This document shows positions 4,594 to 53,647 of a DNA stretch of 64,000 nucleotides, piece by piece (position 1 is the stretch's first letter; each line of letters begins with the position of its first letter). Location: assembly GCF_023721795.1 (NCBI RefSeq), contig NZ_JAMQYE010000001.1, positions 930,001 to 994,000 of the forward strand, given 5' to 3'. Under the pieces are notes generated by a model. That model saw only the letters and a list, made by a program, of their open reading frames with translations, searched no databases and had not been told where the DNA came from. A program made the position numbers and the translations under genes. Source of the DNA: Zeimonas sediminis. GTDB lineage: Bacteria > Pseudomonadota > Gammaproteobacteria > Burkholderiales > Burkholderiaceae_E.

Positions 4594-4658
4594 CGAAGGG
4601 GCGCCGCGCAGGCGCTCCTTTCCACGAAGGGGCGCCCGCGCGGCGCCCCTTTCCTTTC
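4594..4658 (+). terminator. tandemly duplicated terminator after gdhA
   Basis: Two hairpins of the same design follow each other. The first has arms 4596-4605 and 4611-4620 with one G-T wobble; the second has arms 4627-4636 and 4642-4651, perfectly paired and followed by a T-rich run. About 31 bases are repeated nearly exactly, so the terminator appears to have been duplicated. It separates gdhA from the receptor gene downstream. Confidence 0.75.
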
Positions 4659-52033: not shown

Positions 52034-52306
52034 ATGTCCCGCACCGTTTTCTGCGTGAAGCTGCAACGCGAGGCCGAAGGCCTCGACTTCCCGCCCTATC
52101 CCGGCGAGCTCGGCAAGAAGCTCTACGAGAGCGTGTCCAAGGAGTCCTGGCAGGGCTGGGTCCGCCACCAGACCATGCTGGTCAACGAGAACAGGCTGAA
52201 CCTGGCCGACGCGCGGGCGCGCAAGTACCTGGCCACGCAGATGGAGAAGTACTTCTTCGGCGATGGCGGGGACAAGCCGGCCGGCTACGTGCCGCCTTCC
52301 GCCTGA
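52034..52306 (+). CDS. yggX: probable Fe(II)-trafficking / oxidative-damage protection protein
   Basis: A 90-residue YggX-family protein linked to iron-sulfur cluster protection and iron trafficking. The family start [20 protein letters not shown] is intact with the conserved cysteine (Cys7), and so is the block [30 protein letters not shown] lies before the ATG. It follows argA by 8 bases and is probably co-transcribed. Beyond it is a 690-base region without a gene that holds two large palindromes. Confidence 0.95.
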
Positions 52307-52368
52307 CCGGCCTCGCTCGGCGTTCGCTGCCGGACCGCGTCGATCGTTTCGATGCGCCCGGCCGGGGA

Positions 52369-52560
52369 GGCGGGACTGGCTTGCCGGACATACGGCTGCG
52401 CCCCTCGCCTTCGGCGAGGGGTTCCGGCGTCTACCTCGTCGCCGGCGGGTCGGAGCTCAACTCGCGAGCCCTGCGGGCTCGCTCAGACAGAGCTCCTCCC
52501 TTTTCGCCGGCTCCTTCGGTAGCCCGCCGCTTGCCCAATGTCCGGCAAGCCAGTCCCGCC
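52369..52560 (+). repeat. structured palindromic element, copy A
   Basis: A 192-base element bounded by a perfect 23-bp inverted repeat (52369-52391 and 52538-52560). Inside, a hairpin (52401-52421) is followed by a core in which stem GGAGCTC/GAGCTCC (52452-52458 and 52490-52496) encloses a second hairpin (52466-52471 and 52475-52480, loop TGC). The two strands of the internal loop are AACTCGC (52459-52465) and GCTCAGACA (52481-52489). GCCGG-CTCCTTCG follows at 52506-52518. The loop sequences recur exactly in copy B, whereas all stems differ. No protein can be assigned to the region. Confidence 0.8.
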
Positions 52561-52734
52561 ACCCCGGCCTCGACGATGTGCCCTGCGCGCGGCCGGAGGC
52601 GCTCGCCTCGCTCGCGCCCTGGGTTCCAGGCACTGCCGTAGATCCTGATCGCAGCCCCGATCGATTTCGGCTCATCGAGGCTGAAGCGGCCACACTGGCG
52701 GGCGCGGTCGCTCGCCCCGCACCGACGCATCGAA

Positions 52735-52947
52735 GCGCGCGGACGGGGTGCCGGCGGGCAAGCGCTTGTGCGCTGGCGCGGGAGCGCAGCGAAGACCCGG
52801 CGAGCGAAGCGAGAGCGGAACGCTGTCTGAGCCCGCCAAAGGCGGGCGAGTTGCGTTCCGCGACGGGGCTGAGCGTCCGCGCGACCAAGCGTTTCCGCGA
52901 AGCGGACAGCGCACCTGCGCTTGCCCGCCGGCACCCCGTCCGCGCGC
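52735..52947 (-). repeat. structured palindromic element, copy B
   Basis: A 213-base element bounded by a perfect 31-bp inverted repeat (52735-52765 and 52917-52947). It is in opposite orientation to copy A. On the minus strand its core has stem GCGGAACGC/GCGTTCCGC (52861-52853 and 52823-52815) around a hairpin with loop TTT (52845-52833). The internal-loop strands are again exactly AACTCGC and GCTCAGACA. GCCGG-GTCTTCG follows downstream at 52801-52790, as in copy A. Identical loops with fully different yet perfectly paired stems imply selection on structure. The 174 bases between the copies (52561-52734) show nothing recognisable. Confidence 0.8.
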
Positions 52948-52996: not shown

Positions 52997-53647
52997 TCAG
53001 CCGCCCGGCTTGCGCCAGCGCCAAACGTGCATCGGCGGGATGTTCAGGAACTCCATCTCCTGGTACTCCGGCGCCCCGAACACCGGCCGCGCCAGGCGCG
53101 CGACGACGTCGCGGAACTGGTAGGCGACGAAGCAGCCGCCCGGCGCGAGCGCCTCGCGCACGGCCTGCACGATGCGCTGGCCGACCTCGGCGGGCATCGT
53201 GGAGAAGGGAATCCCGGATATCACTGCCTGCGGCGACCGCTGGCGGTACGCGGCGAGCGTCTGCACGATGTGCTCCGCGCTGCCCTGGTGGACCACCAGG
53301 CGCGGGTCGCGCACGGTGTTGCGGACATGATCGGCGAACAGCGGGTCGAGCTCGATCGCCATCAGCGCCGAGCCGGCGGGCATCGCCTTCAGGAAGGCCC
53401 GCGTCGTGCCGCCGGTGCCGGGGCCGAGCTCGACGACCGACTCGGCGCTGGCGAGGCCGGCCACGCCGACCAGCCTGCGCTCCATGAAGCGAGAGCTCGG
53501 GATCACCGAACCGACACCCCTGGGCTCGCGCAGGAAGCCCTGGAGGAAAGTCAATCGTTCATCGCGCTGGGTTCGTGCCGGCTGCTCGCCGTGCACGAGC
53601 GTTTCGTCGTCTCCGGCCAGGTCCGTTCGCGGCGATCGAGATGACAC
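52997..53647 (-). CDS. class I SAM-dependent methyltransferase (phospholipid N-methyltransferase-like)
   Basis: A 216-residue methyltransferase. FLREPRGVGSVIPSSRFMERRLV followed by VVELGPGTGGTTRAFL (motif I) is the typical start of the PmtA/rRNA-dimethylase-like group. AIELDPLFADHV is motif II and VISGIPFSTMP is motif IV. It probably methylates phosphatidylethanolamine or another lipid headgroup, but this is by similarity only. The start is a GTG at 53647 with AGGAGAG upstream, 21 bases after rpiA, so it is second in that operon. Its 3' end faces the palindromic elements. Confidence 0.8.
   Translation of the reverse strand: MSSRSPRTDLAGDDETLVHGEQPARTQRDERLTFLQGFLREPRGVGSVIPSSRFMERRLVGVAGLASAESVVELGPGTGGTTRAFLKAMPAGSALMAIELDPLFADHVRNTVRDPRLVVHQGSAEHIVQTLAAYRQRSPQAVISGIPFSTMPAEVGQRIVQAVREALAPGGCFVAYQFRDVVARLARPVFGAPEYQEMEFLNIPPMHVWRWRKPGG

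What the first reader, a model, noticed from the sequence alone, without database searches (positions are those of the whole stretch)
52369..52947. Two palindromic elements with identical loops and unrelated stems: a candidate structured RNA or hairpin-borne mobile repeat
Seen directly: copy A (52369-52560, plus) and copy B (52735-52947, minus) are each closed by a perfect inverted repeat (23 and 31 bp). Each has a core in which a stem and an inner hairpin are separated by an internal loop of exactly AACTCGC on one side and GCTCAGACA on the other. The stems are different in sequence (GGAGCTC/GAGCTCC against GCGGAACGC/GCGTTCCGC; inner hairpins GAGCCC/GGGCTC with loop TGC against CCGCC/GGCGG with loop TTT) yet perfectly paired. 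A GCCGG-n-TC-n-TTCG segment follows in both. Loop conservation with full stem replacement means that structure plus loop sequence is selected. It could be an RNA motif, a REP/BIME-like transposed palindrome, or a recombination substrate processed as a folded strand. I cannot assign it to a named family from memory.
Basis: seen in the sequence. Interest (0 to 1): 0.85.

Follow-up and report, generated by a model that had tools for sequence, protein, structure and literature searches.

The report
Widespread DNA hairpins with conserved tip
Two long hairpins between two genes belong to a family of repeated elements, seen in distantly related bacteria, that share the same tip sequence on otherwise unrelated, near-perfect stems; the evidence points to the strand opposite to the one first read as the strand that folds, which suggests an undescribed kind of mobile palindromic DNA.

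Summary
In detail: two ~210-nt palindromes carry the same apical internal loop (AACTC / TC[A/G]GACA) on unrelated, near-perfect stems, at a convergent gene junction, each about 50 nt past a stop codon. The own genome holds 17 exact copies (reversed control 0) and 29 by covariance model; the 18 whose arms I delimited all have different arms. The same tip on other stems occurs in Clostridium (97 exact copies in C. hydrogenum), Marinobacter, Bacteroidota, Nitrospirota and others. No Rfam match.

Copies are dispersed, often as convergent pairs, differ in presence between species, and one has flipped. C. hydrogenum carries at least 13 related ~650-bp double-hairpin units.

Best reading (about 0.5): a mobile palindromic DNA element, REP-like in lifestyle but not a REP, acting as a single-stranded hairpin recognised at its tip by an unknown enzyme. 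Here no Y1 transposase, and no integron integrase above cut-off, was found. Antisense or 3'UTR RNA remains possible; mobility and ssDNA are inferred.

The parts
52360..52569 (+). element A, whole palindrome (cap strand = +; inferred folded strand = -)
52360..52391 (+). A left arm, 31 of 32 paired with 52538-52569; sequence particular to this copy
52538..52569 (+). A right arm
52401..52421 (+). A side hairpin, loop TTC (GAA on the opposite strand)
   Evidence: loop read directly
52452..52496 (+). A cap: stem GGAGCTC/GAGCTCC around AACTCGC...GCTCAGACA (52459-52489)
52570..52734 (.). spacer between the two convergent elements
   Evidence: convergent-pair layout
52735..52947 (-). element B, whole palindrome (cap strand = -; inferred folded strand = +)
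52735..52765 (-). B arm, perfect 31 bp with 52917-52947; sequence particular to this copy
52917..52947 (-). B other arm
52815..52861 (-). B cap: stem GCGGAACGC/GCGTTCCGC around AACTCGC...GCTCAGACA (52824-52852)
52034..52306 (+). upstream gene of A: Fe(2+)-trafficking protein (Pfam Iron_traffic); stop codon about 50 nt before A
52997..53647 (-). convergent gene, upstream gene of B: methyltransferase-like; stop codon about 50 nt before B

Best explanation
A and B are two copies of a dispersed, mobile or formerly mobile, non-coding palindromic DNA element. The tip (two short unpaired tracts around a small inner hairpin, often closed by a GNA- or GNNA-type loop) is the recognition site; the long stem only has to be paired, so its sequence drifts freely. 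Elements mostly sit just past stop codons in one orientation, often as convergent pairs at the ends of converging genes, and spread as single hairpins or as double-hairpin units by an enzyme not identified here. Shown: multi-copy family, same tip on copy-specific paired arms, placement in the genomes examined, convergent pairing, presence/absence, strand asymmetry. Inferred: single-stranded DNA rather than RNA, recognition by an enzyme at the tip, and mobility by a dedicated mechanism.
For: Copies: 17 exact in the own genome, reversed control 0; 29 by covariance model at E<=0.01, and 0 in two genomes of the same family. The 18 own elements whose arms were delimited have arms of 30-44 bp with 28-41 paired, all different (best sliding identity of the outer 22 nt 0.80, median 0.60, in G-rich sequence), while 7 core pairs are at least 90% alike. 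Mobility signs: at the window's junction both flanking genes were located in the own genome and 14 genus relatives; own and G007 have 2 caps each, the other 13 have none; G006, cut by a contig end, has them too. A second own element is only a 13-bp hairpin in G007, a second G007 element is absent here, and one core is inverted between the species. C. hydrogenum has at least 13 further units of 612-669 aligned bases at 79-89% identity to one unit. Neighbouring caps within 700 bp: 45 of 52 convergent. Strand: the opposite strand is more stable in 27/27 own, 24/24 G007, 19/21 other Burkholderiales, 58/64 Clostridium, 65/80 other named, 9/14 Pseudomonadota (RNA parameters; DNA parameters 26/27, 24/24, 19/21, 54/64, 72/80, 12/14). 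On the cap strand A.C exceeds G.T in 29 of 54 taxon groups, the reverse in 9, ties 16 (sign p=0.0017); terminator-like hairpins in the fetched sequences show the opposite, G.T 60 to A.C 21. On the opposite strand 45 of 47 triloops of other named taxa are GNA, and 20 of 24 tetraloops over all groups are GNNA, only 5 of them GNRA, which suits DNA loop rules (recalled) better than RNA ones.
Against: No mobilising gene was found: no Y1 transposase in the own genome, and 6 of 12 cap-rich genomes have none; of 9 fetched Y1 loci 8 have no cap and one has a cap-like match 2.3 kb from a Y1 place. No clean empty site with a target duplication was seen. In the own genus the mismatch test is not significant and G007 runs the other way (A.C to G.T: own 9 to 5, G007 6 to 9). 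GNA triloops are 0 of 9 in Clostridium and 5 of 14 in G007. Copies within a genome are related, so 27/27 is not 27 independent facts. Folding selection on that strand would equally suit an antisense RNA. Placement just past stop codons in one orientation (14 of 14 in C. magnum, 17 of 20 in C. hydrogenum) is what an mRNA 3' element would show.
Confidence: 0.5

Rival explanations
1. It is an RNA element of the upstream gene's 3' untranslated region (terminator, stabiliser or protein-binding hairpin), read on the cap strand.
For: Sense orientation relative to the upstream gene: 14 of 14 in C. magnum, 17 of 20 in C. hydrogenum, 22 same, 4 opposite, 1 without a called gene of 27 own caps (my reading). 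In Clostridium the 5' arm starts within 30 nt of the stop codon in 34 of 44 cases with a stop found. Same placement in the window.
Against: The cap strand is the poorer folder in nearly all groups; over many taxa G.T pairs are fewer than A.C on it, unlike in terminator-like hairpins; triloops are mostly TNC on this strand outside Clostridium and G007; no T run after the base of A or B and mostly none in the Clostridium copies; orientation is mixed in other AT-rich named genomes (upstream gene same 19, opposite 13, none 4 of 36).
Confidence: 0.15
2. It is a structured RNA made from the opposite strand, antisense to the end of the upstream gene, e.g. outward transcripts from the spacer.
For: Same strand asymmetry as the best reading.
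Against: In C. hydrogenum a terminator-like A/T-flanked hairpin lies in the spacer between the two elements (read by eye from the consensus), which would stop such transcripts; in C. magnum the 14 caps stand alone in their 2.5-kb loci; GNNA loops show no purine preference at the third position; no Rfam match at the elements.
Confidence: 0.15
3. It is a plain double-stranded or cruciform palindrome with no active strand, kept perfect by template-switch correction of the arms and spread by homologous or replicative accidents.
For: Arms differ between orthologous copies of two species yet stay paired; long near-perfect arms.
Against: Does not explain the same tip in several phyla, nor the strand asymmetry.
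Confidence: 0.12
4. It is a REP/REPIN family moved by a RAYT (TnpA-REP) or TIRYT.
For: Same lifestyle: many copies, inverted pairs, between convergent genes, behind coding regions (abstract and sections 14, 16 of PMC3733652).
Against: No Y1 transposase in the own genome nor in 5 other cap-rich genomes of 12; in 8 of 9 fetched Y1 loci no cap. One Thioalkalivibrio Y1 gene is flanked by an ~83-nt inverted repeat that recurs in L128, but about 5 kb from the caps there. The shared part is the tip, not a GTAG/CGTC tag at the base; ~200 nt, not 20-40.
Confidence: 0.06

Closest known systems
REP / REPIN (GTAG- and CGTC-tagged palindromes): PMC3733652 (abstract, sections 14 and 16, passages), PMC8266576 (abstract, section 27)
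   Same: Dispersed extragenic palindromes, often inverted pairs between convergent genes; TnpA-REP recognises a folded single strand with loops or irregularities, strand-specifically.
   Different: Shared tip instead of a basal tag; ~200-300 nt instead of 20-40; stem sequence free; no Y1 transposase in the own genome.
Integron attC sites (bottom-strand folded; as described in section 27 of PMC8266576)
   Same: One active folded strand recognised by unpaired bases; copy-specific sequence and a place after a gene (both recalled).
   Different: Shared part is apical; integron integrase above its cut-off in only 1 of 12 cap-rich genomes.
BRE, Beta-proteobacterial repeat element of Bordetella (PMC3110155: abstract, passages, section 14)
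   Same: Dispersed, usually intergenic repeat in Betaproteobacteria with mobile features.
   Different: About 90 bp, sequence-conserved, often in tandem. Its sequence is only in a figure and supplement that I did not see, so identity could not be compared.
skipping-rope RNA (RF02924)
   Same: Long hairpin with conserved loops (recalled).
   Different: Best match in the own genome 14.7 bits against a cut-off of 36.7, and not at this locus.
TIR families of tyrosine transposases (TIRYT), PMC3733652 section 16
   Same: Some TIR families are self-complementary and paired.
   Different: Flank a Y1 transposase gene; none found here. TIR sequences are in figures not held, so not compared.

Membership tests
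REP (GTAG/CGTC) | GTAG or CGTC tag beside the base of the palindrome | tested here: not met
   Direct reading of A and B flanks only; other copies not scanned.
REP (GTAG/CGTC) | RAYT / Y1 transposase in the genome | tested here: not met
   PF01797: 0 in own genome; 6 of 12 cap-rich genomes have one; 8 of 9 fetched Y1 loci without a cap.
REP (GTAG/CGTC) | inverted pairs (dimers) | tested here: met
   45 of 52 neighbouring caps convergent.
Integron attC | integron integrase present | tested here: not met
   TIGR02249 above cut-off in 1 of 12 genomes, not the own; weaker matches in all 12 and in all 14 control genomes.
Integron attC | R''/R' boxes (RYYYAAC / GTTRRRY, recalled) at the base of the hairpin | not tested
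   Not scanned.
Any Rfam family | match above gathering score at the elements | tested here: not met
   Window (tRNAs only), 9 loci (none), 12 loci (rRNA and tRNA only); at E<=5 only two microRNA models far below their cut-offs.
skipping-rope RNA RF02924 | covariance-model match | tested here: not met
Intrinsic terminator | T run directly after the hairpin | tested here: not met
   No T run after A or B; mostly none in the 47 Clostridium rows.
MITE-like mobile unit | many similar copies with fixed ends at different sites | tested here: met
   C. hydrogenum units; in the own genome only cores are alike.
MITE-like mobile unit | target-site duplication or clean empty site | tested here: inconclusive
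   Flanks too diverged; partial cases.

The most novel reading that the evidence does not exclude
A previously undescribed, trans-phylum class of mobile DNA that travels as a single-stranded giant hairpin: an enzyme reads only a DNA tip motif (TGTCTGA-GC-GNA-GC-GAGTT and variants) on one strand, while the stem is free sequence, so each copy or lineage carries its own arms; the element is delivered to the ends of genes.
Probability: 0.3. Interest if true: 0.9.

Novelty: new variant of a known kind. Interest (0 to 1): 0.75.

Why it matters
A tip motif of about a dozen bases recurs from Clostridia to Proteobacteria and Bacteroidota while the stem is free, in up to about 100 exact copies per genome. 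Something probably reads that tip on one strand. Finding it would reveal a new reader of single-stranded DNA or RNA hairpins, explain a class of unannotated intergenic palindromes, and could give a structure-guided DNA mobility system.

Tried and rejected
Rfam and skipping-rope: no. RAYT. Integron integrase. Plasmids with the two elements as queries: no match. Search for a gene inside widely spaced pairs: L448 turned out to hold a third cap and genes that look ordinary by eye; the ORFs of L448 and L022 were not searched against families. Clean empty site in C. guangxiense: not found. Exact caps in viral contigs: only 5 of 99 matches with flanks have a stem of 6 or more, so mostly chance. I first read the elements as sense 3'UTR RNA; the mismatch test turned that round. 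Literature: exact strings of the cap or its complement gave 0 papers; the listings showed no title or abstract describing this motif; the nearest was BRE, which I then read in part. PMC8501573 was seen as one passage, PMC10527192 as passages. The library lacks most subscription papers, so absence from print is not shown.

Limits. The structural scan, the loop and energy counts and the alignments used a regular expression that demands AACTC and TC[A/G][G/A]ACA, so the constancy of those letters there is by construction; evidence that the tip itself is kept comes from the zero reversed controls, from copies found by BLAST and from the C. hydrogenum alignment. The covariation table used sequences chosen for having stems; the unselected figure is 75 of 132 exact matches with a stem of at least 6 against 0.8% for mixed flanks. 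The covariance search scored 150 of 3660 candidates in the own genome. Gene calls are my own simple ORF models. The 54 taxon groups were partly merged by hand.

Full report
What is in the window. Searches confirm both palindromes. Both carry AACTCGC ... GCTCAGACA around a small inner hairpin on an unrelated stem. In the window the motif occurs twice and in 100 shuffles never; inverted repeats with arms of 18 or more give 4 binned counts against 0 in each of 20 shuffles. A lies about 50 nt past the stop of an Fe(2+)-trafficking gene, B about 50 nt past the stop of a convergent methyltransferase-like gene.

A family in the genome. The exact motif occurs 17 times in the 3.86-Mb genome and 0 times reversed. 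A covariance model of the tip finds 29 copies (150 of 3660 candidates scored). Cores fall into a few types. For 18 own elements the arms could be delimited: 30-44 bp with 28-41 paired, all different (best sliding identity of the outer 22 nt 0.80, median 0.60 of 153 pairs), while 7 pairs of core mid-parts are at least 90% identical. By my reading of the gene calls, of 27 own caps 22 lie in the sense direction of the upstream gene, 4 opposite, 1 without a called gene (one pattern match without a palindrome left out).

Change between species. The closest genus member, G007 (85% identity over the locus), has both elements at the same junction with different but again paired arms for A; its B has one arm decayed (read). 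Both flanking genes were located in the own genome and 14 relatives: own and G007 have 2 caps each, 13 have none, with intergenic stretches of 38-163 nt as cut, several holding other, uncapped hairpins. G006, cut by a contig end, has elements too. At other junctions cores are nearly unchanged while arms differ. A second own element is only a 13-bp hairpin in G007; a second G007 element is missing here, one core is inverted between the species, and one own element has lost its middle.

A family across Bacteria. Pattern scans (capped) and a structural scan (213 hits, overlapping loci counted more than once, 2 in reversed sequence, loci chosen for the motif) give the same tip on unrelated stems in Clostridium, Blautia, Marinobacter, Thioalkalivibrio, Stenotrophomonas, Pontibacter, Geobacter, Nitrospirae and others. 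Of 132 exact matches with flanks 75 have a stem of at least 6 pairs, against 0.8% for mixed flanks; the others are probably chance. Copy numbers, exact motif, control 0 in all 16: C. hydrogenum 97, Thioalkalivibrio ALE14 30, Blautia 28, C. guangxiense 25, C. magnum 24, Luteimonas terrae 19, Derxia gummosa 17; the lowest are 2. In Pseudomonadota 40 of 397 genomes have at least one match and 8 have a control match, so single matches are often chance and the real spread is patchy; two genomes of the own family have none by covariance model. In an alignment of 33 tips chosen for their stems, all 10 outer stem pairs change on both sides and 84.6% of cells pair against 51.3% shuffled.

Size and layout. 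In C. hydrogenum and C. magnum 44 of 47 hairpins folded have 71-124 pairs, and in 34 of the 44 with a stop found the 5' arm starts within 30 nt of it. The upstream gene is in sense in 14 of 14 (C. magnum) and 17 of 20 (C. hydrogenum) cases, but in other AT-rich named genomes the picture is mixed (19 same, 13 opposite, 4 none of 36). Neighbouring tips are convergent in 45 of 52 pairs. In C. hydrogenum at least 13 units align with L375 over 612-669 bases at 79-89% identity: two hairpins with a terminator-like spacer.

Which strand folds. Energy: it is the more stable fold in 27 of 27 own copies tested, 24 of 24 in G007 and most copies elsewhere, with RNA and DNA parameters (own 26 of 27 with DNA parameters); the Pseudomonadota sample is weak with RNA parameters (9 of 14, p=0.10). 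Mismatches (A.C to G.T on the cap strand): C. hydrogenum 138 to 33, C. magnum 35 to 12, C. guangxiense with G078 15 to 8, other named 54 to 22, other Burkholderiales 24 to 9, own 9 to 5, G007 6 to 9; with a looser rule, other Burkholderiales 32 to 22, and of 54 taxon groups 29 have more A.C, 9 more G.T, 16 tie. Terminator-like hairpins, read on the strand with the T run, give G.T 60 to A.C 21, so the test works and a mutation bias linked to gene direction is an unlikely cause. Loops on the opposite strand: GNA among triloops in 45 of 47 other named, 15 of 21 own, 5 of 14 G007, 4 of 5 other Burkholderiales, 0 of 9 Clostridium, with TNC 0, 2, 2, 0, 1; tetraloops GNNA in 20 of 24 over all groups, only 5 of them GNRA. 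GNA minihairpins such as d(GCGAAGC) and GNNA tetraloops are known as very stable in DNA (recalled; the passages of PMC10527192 that I saw speak of extraordinarily stable DNA or RNA minihairpins in general). This leans to DNA, not decisively.

Mechanism. The element behaves as mobile or formerly mobile palindromic DNA. I infer that a single-stranded hairpin of the opposite strand is the working form and that its tip is read by an enzyme. I did not find the enzyme: no Y1 transposase here or in 5 further cap-rich genomes of 12; of 9 fetched Y1 loci 8 have no cap, one has a cap-like match 2.3 kb from a Y1 place, and one Thioalkalivibrio Y1 gene is flanked by another inverted repeat; no integron integrase above cut-off in 11 of 12.

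Known relatives. REP elements share the lifestyle but not the tag, size or transposase (PMC3733652, PMC8266576). attC sites share the one-strand folding principle. BRE of Bordetella (PMC3110155) is a ~90-bp repeat, often in tandem, whose sequence I could not see. No Rfam family matched at the elements.

Noticed in passing
L375:1117-1762 and (Clostridium hydrogenum): A ~650-bp unit of two giant hairpins with the spacer motif AAAATTCCTCCGTGCCTACGGAATTTT, repeated many times; ends resemble ATTGCGAAGTAAGTGTAGT inverted repeats, often right after a TAA triplet.
   Followed up: partly
L093:1001-1215 versus L088: Core inverted between two species while the arms still align, as if flipped by recombination between its arms.
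   Followed up: no
L083:1337-1529: Arms like those of the own genome's element with compensatory changes, but the apical part is replaced by another hairpin without the cap.
   Followed up: no
L001:640-760: The site that holds an element in G007 carries instead a short tandem repeat containing GCGCCC and CCTGGAGGTCG pieces seen around other elements.
   Followed up: no
L451:430-873, L214:300-760, L127:1900-2500, L164: Some proteobacterial versions are flanked by further hairpins of the type GTTACTTTTCTTG..CAAGAAAAGTAAC, suggesting a larger composite element.
   Followed up: no
L475:10022-10942 and L128:373-453, 1283-1369: In Thioalkalivibrio a Y1 transposase gene is flanked by an ~83-nt inverted repeat that also occurs twice in L128, away from the caps: a separate repeat family.
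   Followed up: no
window 4596-4651: The only other long hairpin found in the window (arms 25, 23 paired, loop 6), without a cap.
   Followed up: no
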